From: an uncultured Gellertiella sp.
GTDB lineage: Bacteria; Pseudomonadota; Alphaproteobacteria; Rhizobiales; Rhizobiaceae
Length of the DNA: 64,000 nt
Direction: 5' to 3'
Assembly: GCF_963457605.1 (NCBI RefSeq)
Contig: NZ_OY735139.1
Coordinates: 682,001 to 746,000, forward strand
Position 1 is the stretch's first letter; each line of letters opens with the position of its first letter. This document shows positions 14,491-63,641 of this stretch, piece by piece. The notes under the pieces were generated by a model that saw only the letters and a list, made by a program, of their open reading frames with translations, was not told where the DNA came from and searched no databases. The translations under genes and the position numbers were made by a program.

Positions 14491-17279
<2,789 letters not shown>

Positions 17280-17519
17280 TTATCCGATTGGCACGGAATG
17301 GAAAGCCGTGCGGGCACCTTGCCAGCCGGAAAATCCGGGGAAAGAGCCCTGCATTTTCATTTTTTAGCGATTTCTAATTTCATGTGGTGCACCCCCGATC
17401 CGGCTGCTAATTTCGACCCGTCGATGGGCAGAAGCAGCCTGCGTGTCAGGTAACGCAATCGGGGGGACAGGCTTTCCCGACTGAGGCATCAGCCTTGCCG
17501 GTCGATATGGAGGTGAACC

Positions 17520-17609
17520 ATGCGGATAATTCCGGTGGCCGTCACGCTTATCCTACGGAAAACCCGCACGACCTGGTCACTGACCGTGCGGGTAACATTC
17601 CGAAAGTGA
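17520..17609 (+). CDS. Short cationic peptide ORF, array unit 1 (29 aa)
   Basis: ATG at 17520 follows GGAGGTGAACC, an excellent ribosome site. The peptide begins MRIIPVAVTLILRKTRTTWS and ends TVRVTFRK: a hydrophobic N-terminal stretch of about 10 residues and a strongly basic C-terminal half. Its last 17 codons are antisense to the unit-1 sRNA. The frame is kept in all four units despite different 3' ends, and substitutions are silent or mostly conservative. It may be a type I toxin-like or leader peptide; translation is not proven. Confidence 0.5.
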   Translation: MRIIPVAVTLILRKTRTTWSLTVRVTFRK

Positions 17610-17643
17610 GTAACTTCGGACAGGCGCTCCAACGCCCGTCCGA
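17558..17643 (-). ncRNA. Predicted sRNA, array unit 1
   Basis: Transcript of about 86 nt predicted from the promoter at 17650-17678. It opens with a 12-bp hairpin (17633-17644 / 17615-17626), then a single-stranded linker of about 21 nt (GTTACTCACTTTCGGAATGTT, the unit-specific part abbreviated here as 17594-17614), and ends with a 9-bp terminator stem (17585-17593 / 17562-17570) plus UUUU. The one non-Watson-Crick pair inside hairpin 1 (17622/17637) is G-U on this strand but A-C on the other, supporting the minus strand. It is antisense to the end of the peptide ORF. Confidence 0.7.
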
Positions 17644-17649
17644 GGCTCC

Positions 17650-17678
17650 ATTATAAGCACTTTCCGATGGATGGCAAG
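17650..17678 (-). promoter_or_regulatory. sigma70 promoter of array sRNA 1
   Basis: Minus strand CTTGCC (17678-17673), 17-bp spacer, TATAAT (17655-17650). This is close to the rhizobial housekeeping consensus CTTGAC-N17-CTATAT and is identical in all four units. Transcription should start near 17643, at the base of hairpin 1. Confidence 0.75.
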
Positions 17679-17886
17679 ACAGGCGCAGCCACGATCAAAG
17701 TGACCCGTCAACTCCAATTCGCCGAACATATTCAATATTGCTAATTTTGAGTGGCGAACCTTTAAGCCGACTGCTATTTTCGACAGGTCGAACGGCAGAA
17801 GCAGCCTGCGTGTCAGGTGACGCAATCGGGAGGACAGGCTTTCCCGACTGAGGCATCAGCCTTGCCGGTCGATATGGAGGTGAACC

Positions 17887-17973
17887 ATGCGGATAATTCC
17901 GGTGGCCGTCACGCTTATCCTACGGAAAACCCGCACGACCTGGTCACTGACCGTGCGGGTTTCATTCCGTTAA
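17887..17973 (+). CDS. Short cationic peptide ORF, array unit 2 (28 aa)
   Basis: Same ribosome site and same first 25 residues as unit 1, then SFR and stop TAA. The nucleotide sequence from the leader through the terminator stem is identical to unit 1; divergence starts in the last four codons, which are also the sRNA linker. Leader hairpins TGCGT/ACGCA (from 17807) and CGGGA/TCCCG (from 17826) lie upstream. A TGCTATTTT extended -10-like element at 17772-17780 is a weak promoter candidate. Confidence 0.5.
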   Translation: MRIIPVAVTLILRKTRTTWSLTVRVSFR

Positions 17974-18011
17974 ATATAGAACCTCGGACAGGCGCGCCAA
18001 CGCCTGCCCGA
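17925..18011 (-). ncRNA. Predicted sRNA, array unit 2
   Basis: Same architecture as unit 1: hairpin 1 (18001-18012 / 17983-17994), linker at 17961-17982 that is A/U-rich and unlike unit 1, terminator stem (17952-17960 / 17929-17937) and UUUU. Compared with unit 3, three hairpin-1 base pairs change on both sides (C-G to T-A, G-C to A-T, A-T to G-C), so the structure, not the sequence, is conserved. Confidence 0.7.
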
Positions 18012-18017
18012 GGCTCC

Positions 18018-18046
18018 ATTATAAGCACTTTCCGATGGATGGCAAG
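18018..18046 (-). promoter_or_regulatory. sigma70 promoter of array sRNA 2
   Basis: CTTGCC (18046-18041) and TATAAT (18023-18018) with 17 bp between them on the minus strand, identical to the other units. Confidence 0.75.
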
Positions 18047-18254
18047 ACAGGCGCAGCCACGATCAAAGTGACCCGTCAACTCCAATTCGCCGAACACATT
18101 CAATGTTGCTAATTTTGAGTGGCGAACCTTTAAACCGACTGCTATTTTCGACAGGTCGAACGGCAGAAGCAGCCTGCGTGTCAGGTGACGCAATCGGGAG
18201 GACAGGCTTTCCCGACTGAGGCATCAGCCTTGCCGGTCGATATGGAGGTGAACC

Positions 18255-18344
18255 ATGCGGATAATTCCGGTGGCCGTCACACTTATCCTACGGAAAACCC
18301 GCACGACCTGGTCACTGACCGTGCGGGTTATATTCAAAAGATAA
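18255..18344 (+). CDS. Short cationic peptide ORF, array unit 3 (29 aa)
   Basis: Same ribosome site; the first 25 residues equal units 1 and 2, then IFKR and stop TAA. The single change inside the shared block (ACG to ACA, Thr) is silent in this frame but changes Ala to Thr in the other open plus-strand frame, which favours this frame. The tail has a different nucleotide sequence but keeps the pattern V-x-F-basic. Confidence 0.5.
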   Translation: MRIIPVAVTLILRKTRTTWSLTVRVIFKR

Positions 18345-18378
18345 GCAAACTCGGGCGGATGCAGCAACATCCGTCCGA
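18293..18378 (-). ncRNA. Predicted sRNA, array unit 3
   Basis: Hairpin 1 (18368-18379 / 18350-18361) has a different sequence in its upper half but still pairs, with compensatory changes against unit 2. The linker (18329-18349) is the most divergent of the four. Terminator stem 18320-18328 / 18297-18305 and UUUU are unchanged. One position (18355/18374) is G-T on the plus strand and C-A on the minus strand, the only point against the minus-strand fold. Confidence 0.7.
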
Positions 18379-18384
18379 GGCTCC

Positions 18385-18413
18385 ATTATAAGCACTTTCC
18401 GATGGATGGCAAG
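18385..18413 (-). promoter_or_regulatory. sigma70 promoter of array sRNA 3
   Basis: CTTGCC (18413-18408) and TATAAT (18390-18385), 17-bp spacer, minus strand. Confidence 0.75.
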
Positions 18414-18618
18414 ACAGGCGCAACCACGATCAAAGTGACCCGCCAATTCCAAATCACCAAACATCAATGTTGCTAATTTTGAGTGGCGAGCCGTTGAGCC
18501 GACTGCTATTTTCGACCCGTCGATGGGCAGAAGCAGCCTGCGTGTCAGGTAACGCAATCGGGGGGACAGGCTTTCCCGACTGAGGCATCAGCCTTGCCGG
18601 TCGATATGGAGGTGAACC

Positions 18619-18705
18619 ATGCGGATAATTCCGGTGGCCGTCACGCTTATCATACGGAAAACCCGCACGACCTGTTCAATCACCGTGCGGGTCACATTCC
18701 GTTAA
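18619..18705 (+). CDS. Short cationic peptide ORF, array unit 4 (28 aa)
   Basis: Same ribosome site and start. This is the most diverged copy: Leu12 to Ile, Trp19 to Cys and Leu21 to Ile, ending TVRVTFR. Two of the three replacements are conservative and no frameshift or early stop has arisen, consistent with selection on the reading frame. Confidence 0.48.
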   Translation: MRIIPVAVTLIIRKTRTTCSITVRVTFR

Positions 18706-18742
18706 TAAAGAACCTCGGACAGGCGCTCCAACGCCTGCCCGA
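18657..18742 (-). ncRNA. Predicted sRNA, array unit 4
   Basis: Hairpin 1 is as in unit 2 but with a loop change; the linker (18693-18713) resembles but differs from unit 2. The terminator stem (18684-18692 / 18661-18669) is intact while its loop carries four changes, as expected if only pairing matters. This is the unit nearest recN, read in the same direction as recN. Confidence 0.68.
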
Positions 18743-18748
18743 GGCTCC

Positions 18749-18777
18749 ATTATAAGCACTTTCCGATGGATGGCAAG
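18749..18777 (-). promoter_or_regulatory. sigma70 promoter of array sRNA 4
   Basis: CTTGCC (18777-18772) and TATAAT (18754-18749), 17-bp spacer, minus strand. The array similarity fades about 20 bp beyond the -35, just before the recN stop codon. Confidence 0.75.
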
Positions 18778-18818
18778 ATCCAGGCTCGGCACGATCAGGC
18801 GGATGGCGACAGCGGGCC

Positions 18819-20492
18819 TCAGCCGTTTCCGGATATCAGCCGGGCGGCGGCGGCGCGGGCCTCTTCGGTGATCGAGGCCCCGGCCAGCATGCGGGCGATT
18901 TCCTCCGTGCGGTCTTCCGGTGCCATCTGCGCGACGCGGGTGGCGATCTTGCCGGCATCCCCCGTGGCCGGGCCCTTGGAGATGAGGAAATGGGTGCCAG
19001 CTCTCGCCGCCACCTGCGGAGCATGGGTGACCGACAGGACCTGGACCGTGTTCGAAAGCCGCTTCAGGCGCTGGCCGATGGCATCGGCTACCGCGCCGCC
19101 GACGCCCGTATCGATTTCGTCGAACACCAGCGTCGGGGCCGAACCGCGGTCGGCAAGCGCGACCTTCAGCGCCAGCAGGAAGCGCGACAGTTCGCCGCCG
19201 GAGGCAACCTTCATGATCGGTCCCGGGCGGGTGCCCGGATTGGTCTGGACATGGAATTCGGCAATGTCGATGCCGCCTGCCCCCGCATTGTCGCGGCGGC
19301 TGTCGAGCTCGACCATGAAGCGGGCCCGCTCCAGCTTCAGCGCCGGCAATTCCGCCATCACCGCTTCGGCAAGTGCCTTTGCCGCCGCGCTCCGTTTGGC
19401 GGAAAGGGCTTCGGCTGCCGAAAAATAGCCTGTCTCGGCGGCAAGGAGCGCCTTCTCCAGCTGCCTCAGCTTTTCCTCGCCCGCATCGAGTTCGGCGAGA
19501 TCCGCCGTCATCCTGACGGCCAGCGCCGGGAGATCGGTGACCGGGACCGCAAATTTGCGCGAGGCGGCGCGCAGGGCAAACAGCCGCTCTTCGACCCGCT
19601 CCAGTTCCTTCGGGTCATATTCGGTCTTGCGCAGCGCCGCTTCCACTTCCATTTGCGCATTGGAGAGCTGGTCAAGGGCCGCATCGAGCAGGGCGACGGT
19701 TTCCTCGAGCAGGCCCGGTGCCTCGTGGCTCTTGCGCTCCAGCCGCCGGACCAGCGAGGCGATATGGGGAACAGGCGACGCATTGCCGTTCAGGAATTCC
19801 GACGCCTCGGCGATATCACCGGCAATGCGCTCGGCCTTCATCATCCTGCCGCGACGCTCGGCCAGATCATCCTCCTCGCCATCGCGTGGCGACAGGGTGG
19901 TCAATTCGTCGACGGCGGCACGCAGATAGTCGGCTTCGCGGGCGGCGGCCTCCACCCGGTCGCGATGCTTCTTCAACTGGCGCTCCGCATCCTTCCAGAG
20001 CCGAAAATGACCGCCAGCGGACTGGGTCTCTTCCGACAAGCCGCCAAAGGCATCGAGCAGCGTGCGGTGTGCATCCGTATCGACCAGTGCCCGGTCATCG
20101 TGCTGGCCGTGGATCTCGACCAGCAATTGCCCGGCCTGGCGCATCAGCTGCACGCTGACGGGCTGGTCGTTGACAAAGGCCTTGGTGCGTCCATCGGCGG
20201 ATTGCATGCGGCGGAAGATCAGGTCGCCATCGTCATCGATGCCGTTTTCACGCAGCAAAAGCCGCGCCGGGTGCTGCATGGCGACGTCGAAGACGGCGGT
20301 GATCTGGCCCTTGTCCTCGCCATGGCGCACGAGATCACCATCGCCCCGCCCACCCAGCGCCAAAGACAGGCTGTCAAGCAGGATGGACTTGCCCGCACCG
20401 GTCTCGCCGGTCAGCACCGACAGGCCGGAATCGAAGGCGAGATCCAACCGTTCGATCAGTACGATGTCGCGGATCGAAAGCTGAACGAGCAT
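18819..20492 (-). CDS. recN: DNA repair protein RecN
   Basis: The 557-residue SMC-like ATPase acts in double-strand-break repair. Walker A GETGAGKS is at about 30-37, followed by LLDSLSLALGGRGD; a coiled-coil-rich middle follows; the signature SGGELSRFLLALK and Walker B LVFDEIDTGVGG are near 420-460. Start MLVQLSIRDIVLIE fits the family. It follows bamD on the same strand (73-bp gap) and runs into the tandem array. No LexA box was identified by eye. Confidence 0.96.
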   Translation of the reverse strand: MLVQLSIRDIVLIERLDLAFDSGLSVLTGETGAGKSILLDSLSLALGGRGDGDLVRHGEDKGQITAVFDVAMQHPARLLLRENGIDDDGDLIFRRMQSADGRTKAFVNDQPVSVQLMRQAGQLLVEIHGQHDDRALVDTDAHRTLLDAFGGLSEETQSAGGHFRLWKDAERQLKKHRDRVEAAAREADYLRAAVDELTTLSPRDGEEDDLAERRGRMMKAERIAGDIAEASEFLNGNASPVPHIASLVRRLERKSHEAPGLLEETVALLDAALDQLSNAQMEVEAALRKTEYDPKELERVEERLFALRAASRKFAVPVTDLPALAVRMTADLAELDAGEEKLRQLEKALLAAETGYFSAAEALSAKRSAAAKALAEAVMAELPALKLERARFMVELDSRRDNAGAGGIDIAEFHVQTNPGTRPGPIMKVASGGELSRFLLALKVALADRGSAPTLVFDEIDTGVGGAVADAIGQRLKRLSNTVQVLSVTHAPQVAARAGTHFLISKGPATGDAGKIATRVAQMAPEDRTEEIARMLAGASITEEARAAAARLISGNG

Positions 20493-48151: not shown

Positions 48152-48299
48152 GAAATCAGGGTTTTACCGAGGCAGGACACGGCTTTACCCGTGTCTTTCA
48201 GCGCCTGCTGAATTGTCCGTTGTCAATCATTTAAATTAAATTAAAACAAAGCCTTGTGCGGAAATCTCAAAAAAATCGGCCCGCCCCGAAAAGGAGAAA

Positions 48300-48757
48300 T
48301 TGCCAGTTGGCCTGTAAGCCGGGTTTTGTATGGCCTCAAGGCCCCTTTCAGGTCCTTGAAACGTGGCAGCCATTCATCTGGGACCCCGCTTGCGCGTGGC
48401 CTCTCGCAACCCACCCGGATGACGACCCCGGAAAGAGGCCGGACCGCTTGCGCGGCCCTGTGTCATCCCTATTCGGTCTTGCTCCCGGTGGGGTTTGCCA
48501 TGCCGTCCCTGTTGCCAGGTCCGCGGTGGGCTCTTACCCCACCCTTTCACCCTTACCCCCGCTCTGCCGTTCACGCGGAACGGACAGGACCGGAGGCGGT
48601 ATCCTTTCTGTGGCACTTTCCCTGAGGTCACCCCCGCCGGACGTTATCCGGCACCGTTTTTCCGTGGAGCCCGGACTTTCCTCACCCCATCGCCTTTCGG
48701 CATTGATGAAGCGCGGCTGCCCGGCCAACTGGCAGCCGCGTCCATAGCCGGGAATAT
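48300..48757 (-). ncRNA. rnpB: RNase P RNA (class A)
   Basis: The universal 5' block GAGGAAAGTCCGGGCTCC reads on the minus strand at 48683-48666, the conserved ACAGAAAGGATACCGCC at 48612-48596 and the 3' block ACAAAACCCGGCTTACAGG at 48329-48311. End sequences GCCAGTTGGCC (near 48740) and GGCCAACTGGC (near 48305) can pair. The ends are set by eye and may be off by about 10 nt. A T7 run on the minus strand at about 48277-48271 probably terminates it. Confidence 0.95.
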
Positions 48758-63173: not shown

Positions 63174-63426
63174 CGACGGAACGCGGCTCGAATTGATACA
63201 ACCATGAGCTGTTTTGATATGACGCAAACAGAACATCAAATGCCGGAACGGTTTCTGGTTAACCACCCGTCAACCACATGAAAATTTATTCCCCATTATA
63301 ATCAAATGGTTGCAATCTCTTCGTTTCGATTTTTGCCGGGCGTTGCTGCATCGCAGGATAGAAACCCCTTGGCGAAAGCCATGTTTCCGCCATATCATGG
63401 CAAGGTAAACAGCCAGGGAGGCCACC

Positions 63427-63504
63427 ATGGGACTCACCAATTCCTTCAATGCGCTTCTGGTCGGTGCTGCGTTTGTCTTCGTTGCCGCGATGCTGTTCAT
63501 CTAG
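63427..63504 (+). CDS. 25-residue membrane peptide
   Basis: ATG at 63427 follows GGGAGGCCACC, a strong ribosome site. The product starts MGLTNSFNALLVG and is one hydrophobic helix (about 8-25) with no charged residue. The stop TAG overlaps the first base of a RIME-like repeat by sequence AGAG, so the repeat inserted at the very end of the gene or supplies its stop. This type of tiny protein escapes standard annotation. No family is recalled. Confidence 0.6.
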   Translation: MGLTNSFNALLVGAAFVFVAAMLFI

Positions 63505-63641
63505 AGTTTGTCAGGGAAAAGTGGAATCCGGTTTTCCCGCTCAAACTTGTTTGAGCGCTCAAACTTGTTTGAGCGAAAAGACAAACGACAACAAGGGGAG
63601 CCAGAGTCTGGCTGGTTCAATATGAACCTGACAGACTCTGG
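63503..63641 (+). repeat. RIME-like intergenic repeat, copy 5 (expanded)
   Basis: Left arm AGAGTTTGTCAGGG (63503) and right palindrome CCAGAGTCTGGCTGG / CAGACTCTGG (63601-63641) flank an added tandem of GCTCAAACTTGTTTGAGC (63539-63574), itself palindromic. The same CAAACTTG module flanks copies 2 and 3 in reverse. This is the longest copy in the window. Confidence 0.85.

What the first reader, a model, noticed from the sequence alone, without database searches (positions are those of the whole stretch)
17402..18799. Four-copy tandem sRNA/peptide array between recN and ligA: candidate multi-copy type I toxin-antitoxin or sRNA family
Seen: four direct units with periods of 367, 368 and 364 bp. 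Each has a minus-strand promoter (CTTGCC-N17-TATAAT), two hairpins and a U-tract (predicted sRNA of about 86 nt), and on the plus strand a GGAGGTGAACC ribosome site with a 28-29 codon ORF whose last 16-17 codons are antisense to the sRNA. The leader and ORF are nearly invariant while the spacer between units has diverged, implying constraint. Both ends of the array keep a complete module. Known: the E. coli LDR loci (ldr/rdl) are tandem repeats pairing a short ORF with an antisense RNA. Inference: a type I toxin-antitoxin-like module. Against it, the peptide is more cationic and less hydrophobic than Ldr or TisB.
Basis: partly seen in the sequence, partly recalled or inferred. Interest (0 to 1): 0.9.

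Follow-up and report, generated by a model that had tools for sequence, protein, structure and literature searches.

The report
Unannotated peptide module with antisense RNA
Four tandem copies of a tiny gene for a positively charged 29-residue peptide, each faced by its own predicted antisense RNA, belong to a family that the databases searched here do not name, found on chromosomes, plasmids and phages of rhizobia and their kin, and it looks like a new RNA-controlled toxin-antitoxin system.

Summary
Each unit has three conserved parts. (1) A ~103-nt leader RNA with strong covariation, two pseudoknots and two competing pairings. (2) An ORF of about 28-32 codons with a strong Shine-Dalgarno site, for a cationic peptide of alternating hydrophobic and polar residues, roughly MWxxPxSITLxIRKTRTGWxxTVRV, predicted (on a 32-residue relative) to be a beta-hairpin. 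(3) A convergent, predicted ~86-nt antisense RNA with a strong promoter, whose terminator hairpin lies inside the ORF.

I collected 131 distinct units. The family is patchy (41 of 199 genomes of the window's family), often tandem, in the genomes sampled confined to the window's order apart from one weak partial hit, and present on plasmids and on Rhizobium and Ochrobactrum phages. Four same-genus genomes have one unit between recN and ligA; here there are four. Between tandem copies the antisense RNA's 5' half diverges far faster than leader or ORF.

Best reading: a new type I-like toxin-antitoxin family with a structured, possibly switching leader. Neither transcription nor toxicity is shown. 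It is not an Ldr homologue: the antisense RNA overlaps the 3' half of the ORF, not the leader.

The parts
17417..17519 (+). structured leader RNA, unit 1
   Evidence: covariance-model hit 63.3 bits, E 6e-11 (this unit was in the training set); structure counted
17520..17609 (+). 29-aa peptide ORF, unit 1 (MRIIPVAVTLILRKTRTTWSLTVRVTFRK)
   Evidence: family; coding test
17557..17643 (-). predicted antisense RNA, unit 1 (5' hairpin, linker, terminator hairpin inside the ORF); ends approximate
17650..17677 (-). antisense RNA promoter, unit 1 (TTGCCA-16-TATAAT)
   Evidence: kept in relatives
17784..17886 (+). structured leader RNA, unit 2
   Evidence: 64.2 bits, E 4e-11
17887..17973 (+). 28-aa peptide ORF, unit 2
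17925..18011 (-). predicted antisense RNA, unit 2; ends approximate
   Evidence: z -5.67
18018..18045 (-). antisense RNA promoter, unit 2
18152..18254 (+). structured leader RNA, unit 3
   Evidence: 64.2 bits
18255..18344 (+). 29-aa peptide ORF, unit 3
18292..18378 (-). predicted antisense RNA, unit 3 (most diverged 5' half, hairpin kept); ends approximate
18385..18412 (-). antisense RNA promoter, unit 3
18516..18618 (+). structured leader RNA, unit 4
   Evidence: 63.3 bits
18619..18705 (+). 28-aa peptide ORF, unit 4 (C at the otherwise nearly invariant W position)
18656..18742 (-). predicted antisense RNA, unit 4; ends approximate
   Evidence: z -6.83
18749..18776 (-). antisense RNA promoter, unit 4

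Best explanation
Each unit is a type I-like toxin-antitoxin module. A weak promoter makes an mRNA that starts at the foot of a folded leader and encodes a cationic amphipathic beta-hairpin peptide, inferred to act on membranes. A strong convergent promoter makes a short antisense RNA that pairs with the 3' half of the ORF and the start of the 3' UTR; pairing plus convergent transcription is inferred to keep the peptide silent through duplex cleavage and interference. The leader adds a second control, probably by exchanging two competing helices next to the Shine-Dalgarno site. Modules spread on plasmids and phages and amplify in tandem. The 5' half of the antisense RNA drifts between copies, which weakens pairing with neighbouring copies. 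Shown: the conserved parts, covariation, coding selection, promoter motifs and distribution. Inferred: expression, toxicity, repression, membrane target, switching.
For: Peptide family in 41 of 199 genomes of the window's family, on plasmids and phages, 131 distinct units. Selection on the ORF outside the antisense RNA (pN/pS 0.44; codon-position differences 97/37/142). Antisense promoter score >= 8 of 11 in 87 of 96 declustered units against 7 of 96 shuffled; the mRNA start region reaches that score in 39 of 114 in a wider scan without shuffled control. Antisense 5' hairpin: mean z -3.06, helix of 6 bp or more in 77 of 107, 63 distinct stems. Leader: 92.7% of cells paired, 449 cells changed on both sides against 128 shuffled. 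The antisense 5' part diverges 22% between tandem copies against 6-7% in leader and N-terminal ORF, and its predicted pairing drops from -100 to -109 (own mRNA) to -34 to -96 kcal/mol (other copies). All 119 peptides examined are net positive, mean +5.0, with hydrophobic and polar columns alternating.
Against: No transcript, translation or toxicity data exist here. The peptide lacks the single alpha-helical transmembrane segment common in type I toxins. The antisense RNA does not cover the Shine-Dalgarno site, so repression must work at a distance. The whole antisense RNA is still predicted to pair strongly with other copies (-95 to -160 against -185 to -194 kcal/mol). The region of the antisense promoter diverges as much (25%) as the antisense 5' part. 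30 of 107 antisense 5' parts lack a 6-bp helix and 28 of 107 do not reach z < -2. No LexA-type box upstream (0-1 of 103) and no plus-strand terminator found from the array's start up to 18830. Single-sequence folding of the window's leader is not more stable than shuffles (z -0.54).
Confidence: 0.62

Rival explanations
1. A ligand- or protein-sensing leader RNA controls a short regulatory, non-toxic peptide, as proposed for the Downstream-peptide RNAs of cyanobacteria; the antisense RNA is a secondary silencer.
For: The leader has riboswitch-like complexity: near-invariant unpaired AAGCAG and CCAG, two pseudoknots and two supported alternative pairings. Precedent: Downstream-peptide motif (PMC2864571, passages).
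Against: In one search the leader hits above 43 bits lie directly before a listed peptide place or a broken one; of the weaker ones six were read and five not. Riboswitches usually sit before several gene types (general knowledge). Spread on phages and plasmids, tandem amplification and patchiness fit a selfish or defence module better than metabolism.
Confidence: 0.17
2. A peptide that acts on other cells or on incoming phages and plasmids (antimicrobial or exclusion peptide), with the antisense RNA as self-protection.
For: Cationic amphipathic beta-hairpin pattern and presence on mobile elements. One plasmid copy has a Rap1a/Tai family immunity protein about 3 kb away.
Against: No export or immunity gene recurs beside the units in 13 annotated regions read, though most neighbours are hypothetical; no signal-peptide test was run. 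No PADLOC match for any of 28 members.
Confidence: 0.1
3. The minus-strand RNA is the functional product, a trans-acting regulator, and the peptide is incidental.
For: Strong conserved promoter and fold; tandem trans-acting sRNAs such as AbcR1/AbcR2 are known in Sinorhizobium (abstract PMC3712013, listing).
Against: The ORF is under codon-level selection outside the antisense RNA and has its own conserved leader. The antisense 5' half shows little sequence conservation between copies.
Confidence: 0.05
4. A passive repeat family spread by duplication, without function.
For: Tandem copies, decayed copies and recent duplication in the window array.
Against: Covariation, codon bias and promoter conservation across genera.
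Confidence: 0.03

Closest known systems
Ldr/Rdl (LDR repeats of E. coli), type I toxin-antitoxin
   Same: tandem repeated units pairing a short ORF with an antisense RNA; long leader before the ORF (PMC4147584, passages)
   Different: Rdl overlaps the 5' UTR of ldr, here the antisense RNA overlaps the 3' half of the ORF; a 35-aa peptide there, about 28-32 aa and predicted beta-hairpin here; no Pfam or NCBIfam match for 3 peptides
TxpA/RatA and BsrG/SR4 of Bacillus, 3'-overlapping type I systems
   Same: converging transcripts; txpA and ratA overlap by about 75 nt at 3' ends, with repression mainly by RNase III decay (PMC4147584, passages)
   Different: per the same passages RatA does not overlap the txpA coding region, here the antisense terminator lies inside the ORF; the passages describe no such leader; BsrG/SR4 details are recalled
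Fst (par of pAD1), plasmid type I system
   Same: plasmid-borne short peptide with convergent RNAs
   Different: Fst RNAs share a terminator outside the coding region and pair through direct repeats
Downstream-peptide RNA motif (RF01704)
   Same: structured leader before a short conserved ORF of no known family (PMC2864571, passages)
   Different: cyanobacterial; the passages describe no antisense gene; no Rfam match here
Lpt of Lactobacillus rhamnosus plasmids
   Same: 29-aa plasmid type I toxin (abstract PMC6811638, listing)
   Different: predicted alpha-helical with hydrophobic centre (abstract PMC11352940, listing); here predicted beta-hairpin

Membership tests
Type I toxin-antitoxin systems | short translated ORF with its own translation signals | tested here: met
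   by sequence: 121 of 131 units start with ATG, SD-like string before most; codon-level selection; translation itself not tested
Type I toxin-antitoxin systems | antisense RNA gene complementary to the toxin mRNA, with its own promoter | tested here: met
   by sequence only: promoter in 87 of 96 declustered units, hairpins; transcription not tested
Type I toxin-antitoxin systems | peptide toxic on overproduction | not testable with these tools
   needs induction in a laboratory strain
Type I toxin-antitoxin systems | antisense RNA prevents toxicity or toxin synthesis | not testable with these tools
   needs genetics
Type I toxin-antitoxin systems (membrane class) | alpha-helical transmembrane peptide | tested here: not met
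   prediction for the 32-aa relative of L009 gives two beta strands, 6-14 and 19-27, mean pLDDT 77; alternating pattern in 119 peptides. A review's figure legend also marks beta-sheet in membrane type I toxins (PMC8309996, passages), so this feature is not absolute
Ldr/Rdl | antisense RNA overlapping the 5' UTR of the toxin mRNA | tested here: not met
   antisense RNA covers about ORF codons 13-29 and the start of the 3' UTR
Ldr/Rdl | sequence homology of the peptide | tested here: not met
   no Pfam or NCBIfam match at E <= 10 for 3 peptides; that Pfam holds an Ldr model is recalled
Rfam families | covariance-model match | tested here: not met
   whole window at gathering score, nothing in the array; array at E <= 10, two mir-4867 hits far under threshold; 8 related loci, none
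Rhizobiales-1 motif of Weinberg 2010 | same sequence and structure | not testable with these tools
   listed without an Rfam number in PMC2864571 (passages); alignment not held
Riboswitches | conserved junction and alternative pairings next to the expression platform | tested here: inconclusive
   two alternative pairings of one strand both covary; no ligand known, one downstream gene family seen

The most novel reading that the evidence does not exclude
The leader is a bistable RNA sensor: strand 82-85 (column numbers) pairs either with the P1 extension 10-13 or with pseudoknot strand 71-74, and this gates translation of a membrane-active beta-hairpin toxin. The same toxin mRNA is also silenced by an antisense RNA whose terminator is written inside the toxin reading frame. 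This would be a doubly RNA-controlled, phage- and plasmid-borne toxin class.
Probability: 0.3. Interest if true: 0.88.

Novelty: new variant of a known kind. Interest (0 to 1): 0.75.

Why it matters
If true, rhizobia and their relatives, their plasmids and phages carry a widespread unannotated family of RNA-controlled peptide toxins. It would add a beta-hairpin toxin to a class in which alpha-helical ones prevail, and a complex folded leader to a class controlled mainly by antisense pairing. The nested layout (an RNA terminator hairpin that must also spell K-T-R-T-x-W...V-R) is a clear case of overlapping information. Tandem arrays with near-identical peptides but diverged antisense halves give a natural test of how separate antisense pairs evolve. 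All parts are short and can be tested in laboratory strains.

Tried and rejected
Rejected: membership in any Rfam family, Pfam or NCBIfam (3 peptides), PADLOC (28 members) or a PDB relative by sequence. PHROGs gave only weak matches (best E 0.015, 4 of 28 members), not used.

Rejected: SOS control. LexA-like boxes GTTC-N7-GTTC, GAAC-N7-GAAC and GAAC-N7-RAAC were found in 1, 0 and 1 of 103 upstream regions; the loose E. coli-type CTG-N10-CAG pattern was in 12 of 103, without a chance control.

Considered and dropped: that copies lacking the 5' half of the ORF are orphan antitoxins. Some sit at contig starts (L045, L048), some have lost or damaged the antisense promoter too (L006, L122, L054), and L123 alone keeps what looks like an intact antisense gene; too few to argue from.

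Considered and dropped: the leader as a free-standing riboswitch. Seven leader hits without an intact peptide beside them were fetched: L175, L176, L177 and L179 look decayed or leader-like without an intact module, L178, L180 and L181 look like chance matches. Five further weak hits (23.9-25.2 bits; in G009, G070, G073, G108, G121) were not read.

Led nowhere: covariance model R2 of the antisense RNA caught only the terminator hairpin, so the 5' hairpin was tested per sequence. Nested single-sequence folding of the window's leader gave no signal (z -0.54); the pseudoknotted structure rests on covariation. A weak class-level hit outside the order (G930, 22.4 bits, half the peptide) was treated as chance. 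One search used a wrong coordinate for its first row and was not used (one search used another wrong one, another the right stretch). In one search nine of 131 units could not be anchored and 26 of the 122 others were dropped by declustering or for N; twenty-four of 131 antisense genes were not parsed by the pattern, though many of them show a promoter by eye in the printed list.
Full report
OBSERVATION. The four units are present as described (periods 367, 368 and 364; alignment). They lie between ligA (15078-17258, minus) and recN (18819-20492, minus), named by NCBIfam equivalog models. Each has a minus-strand TTGCCA-16-TATAAT promoter-like site and a predicted 86-nt RNA folding as two hairpins, z -4.5, -5.7, -5.2 and -6.8, and on the plus strand an ORF of 28-29 codons behind GGAGGTGAACC. 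The terminator scan missed the minus-strand terminators because their U-tract is short. The spacer is not what diverged most; see below.

WHERE IT IS. The window's genome (4.17 Mb, 2 contigs) has seven places with the peptide: the four of the array, two more intact ones and one truncated, plus a decayed leader. A genome of the same genus (G004) has three contig lengths equal to those of Gellertiella hungarica DSM 29853, so the window most likely comes from Gellertiella (Rhizobiaceae). In four same-genus genomes one unit lies between recN and ligA (tblastn of both genes; one nhmmer hit per locus). The array therefore looks like an expansion of one ancestral unit.

FAMILY. Starting from the four units, nhmmer and a peptide profile gave 166 hits in the loci fetched up to then, 131 after removal of identical ones. 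The peptide consensus is about MWxxPxSITLxxRKTRTGWxxxVRVxF, with M1, R16, W19 and R24 invariant in a 46-member alignment that leaves out window unit 4, which has C at the W position. With a profile the family was found in 41 of 199 genomes drawn from the window's family and 28 of 109 genera at E <= 0.01, up to 13 places per genome. At E <= 0.001 it was in 22 of 397 genomes drawn from the order, 2 of 385 from the class (the own genome and one weak half match) and 2 of 299 from the phylum (own genome and a same-family genome). A scan of the species-genome collection with a narrower pattern returned 46 loci from Rhizobium, Xaviernesmea, Ferranicluibacter, Phyllobacterium, Gellertiella, Brucella species and unnamed Rhizobiales. 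Plasmid records: 38 with one peptide query at E <= 10, best 3e-4; 43 with another at E <= 1; 67 with a DNA query at E <= 1e-5; genera include Sinorhizobium, Agrobacterium, Rhizobium, Roseibium, Labrenzia, Microvirga, Ancylobacter and Bosea. Phage records: 14 at E <= 10, best 0.03, including Ochrobactrum phage POI1126 and Rhizobium phages RHEph10 and B1VFA; 8 viral contigs. Many of these peptide E-values are weak one by one. Independent support is that the leader model also hits POI1126 (86.2 bits), RHEph10 (86.1), RHph_Y2_11 (92.4), three plasmid loci (L058, L061, L062) and all 8 viral contigs; B1VFA was not tested with it. No CDS is listed under the peptide in 37 of 38 plasmid rows, 42 of 43 and 13 of 14 phage rows, the remaining one in each list having no annotation; the plasmid gene table is incomplete by its own description. 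Of nine annotated plasmid regions read three have a partition or replication gene within about 2.5 kb: ParB in Roseibium and Ancylobacter, repC in A. tumefaciens CFBP6625.

THE ORF IS CODING. In 58 disjoint close pairs, nine codons upstream of the antisense RNA show pS 0.299 and pN 0.132 (ratio 0.44; the other two frames give 0.80 and 2.53), with differences by codon position of 97, 37 and 142. In the 11 codons that overlap the terminator hairpin the ratio is 0.63, as expected where the RNA also constrains. These units were picked with a peptide profile, which favours a kept frame and conserved residues, so the ratio may be somewhat low; the excess at third positions does not follow from that alone. 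All 119 peptides examined are net positive (mean +5.0), and hydrophobic and polar columns alternate before and after the TRTxW turn. AlphaFold2, run on the 32-aa peptide of the orthologous unit in another genome of the genus (L009) with 24 relatives, gives strands 6-14 and 19-27, mean pLDDT 77, pTM 0.30. The window's own peptide was one of the relatives, not the target.

THE ANTISENSE RNA. With an anchor that does not use the promoter, 122 of 131 units could be placed, 96 after declustering. A CTTGA / TATAAT-type promoter scores 8 or more of 11 in 87 of 96, against 7 of 96 after shuffling. The mRNA start region reaches 8-9 in 39 of 114 in a wider scan without control and shows an A/T-rich stretch about 22 nt before AAGCAG, so the mRNA probably starts at the foot of the leader from a weaker promoter; this is inference. 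The first 46 nt of the antisense RNA fold better than shuffles (107 sequences, mean z -3.06, 79 with z < -2), with 63 different stem sequences among 77 helices of 6 bp or more. The terminator hairpin lies in the codons for K-T-R-T-x-W...V-R. Across 30 distinct tandem pairs (of 43 adjacent pairs; the rest duplicates or incomplete) divergence is 5.9% in the leader, 6.7% in the N-terminal ORF, 9.7% over the terminator, 22.2% in the antisense 5' part and 25% in the region of its promoter. So the antisense 5' part is about as free in sequence as the promoter region, while its fold is kept. In the window the contrast is sharper: units 2 and 3 have 0 of 103 differences in the leader, 0 of 36 in the promoter, 13 of 103 in the spacer, 11 of 22 in the linker and 10 of 30 in the hairpin. 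Predicted pairing of the 5' part with another copy's mRNA is weaker (-34 to -96) than with its own (-100 to -109 kcal/mol), but the full antisense RNA still pairs strongly across copies, so isolation between copies would be partial.

THE LEADER. A model built from 64 leaders finds 125 matches in the window and 95 loci given to it, the 64 among them by construction. The structure read from the alignment has P1, P2, P3, a short hairpin P4 and two pseudoknots (26 pairs): 92.7% of cells paired, 449 cells changed on both sides against 128 in shuffles, covariation score 0.485 against at most 0.139 for slid versions (cells count sequences, not events). P2 (in part), P3 and the pseudoknot 71-74 with 82-85 were in the structure used to fit the alignment, so their counts lean on the fit. 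P1, P4, the P3-loop pseudoknot and the alternative pairing were not. In disjoint pairs of at least 60% identity that differ at the 3' column, the partner compensates for helices in the fit in 29 of 29 (74-82) and 38 of 42 (48-62), and for pairs outside the fit in 40 of 41 (56-80), 31 plus 8 wobble of 52 (9-86) and 25 plus 10 wobble of 40 (68-77). The strand 82-85 has a second supported partner, 10-13 (an extension of P1): 13-82 is compensated in 22 and kept in 2 of 31 (seven control columns against 82: compensated in 0-6 of 31), 10-85 in 20 plus 15 wobble of 53 (control 10-86: 7 plus 6 of 53), 11-84 in 7 plus 3 of 18. The whole alternative structure gives 90.5% paired and 481 double-changed cells. 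Both pairings cannot form together, which suggests a switch just before the Shine-Dalgarno site; that is inference. In 121 genomes of the family the leader model hit 33 at E <= 0.01, 8 of them only by hits under 43 bits. Compared by eye with the peptide places, the hits above 43 bits lie directly before a peptide or a broken one (G020:C13:39134 has an insertion, G091:C35 a broken peptide). Of eleven weaker hits six were read and none is an intact leader with another gene; five were not read.

INTERPRETATION. Shown: a conserved three-part module with opposed promoter motifs, spread on mobile elements and repeated in tandem. Inferred: the weak and strong promoters, cis-antisense layout and cationic amphipathic peptide together fit a type I toxin-antitoxin module best. 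The antisense RNA does not reach the Shine-Dalgarno site, so repression would resemble 3'-overlapping systems such as txpA/RatA, where RNase III decay is the main route (PMC4147584, passages). [quoted passage not shown] its figure legend also marks beta-sheet, so some beta structure may already be known there (PMC8309996, passages). The main rival is a leader that senses something and controls a non-toxic peptide, for which Downstream-peptide RNAs give precedent (PMC2864571, passages).

NOVELTY. Ten searches of the held library of open papers gave no report of this family that I recognised, judging from listings and from passages of six papers (PMC5521070, PMC5082802, PMC4147584, PMC8309996, PMC2864571, PMC3927594). 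Most subscription papers are not held and supplementary files were not readable. PMC5521070 predicted coding sRNAs and type I toxins in a set that includes S. meliloti 1021; its predictions were not compared. The Rhizobiales-1 candidate RNA of Weinberg 2010 has no Rfam number and could not be compared, so the leader alone might have been seen before. Filed as a new variant of a known kind: it is built like a type I system but differs in layout from Ldr and in predicted peptide fold from most.

Noticed in passing
window 63404-63533 (+): Rfam sRNA Atu_C9 (RF02503), 61.1 bits.
   Followed up: no
window 48299-48732 (-): RNase P RNA, bacterial class A, 301.7 bits.
   Followed up: no
L060 4882-4995 (Ochrobactrum phage POI1126 gp29) and L168 2899-3102 (A. 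tumefaciens CFBP6625): Deposited hypothetical CDSs lie over the leader RNA on the same strand, while the peptide ORF beside them is not annotated; they may be spurious genes.
   Followed up: partly
L006, L122, L123, L054, L175, L176, L179: Decayed or truncated copies of the module; L123 keeps what looks like an intact antisense gene but lacks leader and ORF start.
   Followed up: partly
G111:C20:7873-8775 (L171) and G111:C1:99502-100379: Two further arrays of three units each in one genome of the family, with periods of 356-357 and 345-346; one ORF has an internal TAG in the search output.
   Followed up: no
window 18619-18705: Unit 4 carries C where nearly all family members have W after TRT[GTS], a possible sign of a decaying copy at the array end.
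   Followed up: no
L183 7207-7641 (Pararhizobium qamdonense plasmid p5): A Rap1a/Tai family immunity protein is annotated about 3 kb from a unit.
   Followed up: no
5' ends of antisense RNAs, e.g. L106, L103, L104: Many antisense genes carry GGAGTG just after the -10 box, a Shine-Dalgarno-like string; it pairs into the foot of the 5' hairpin in many predicted folds. Meaning unknown.
   Followed up: partly
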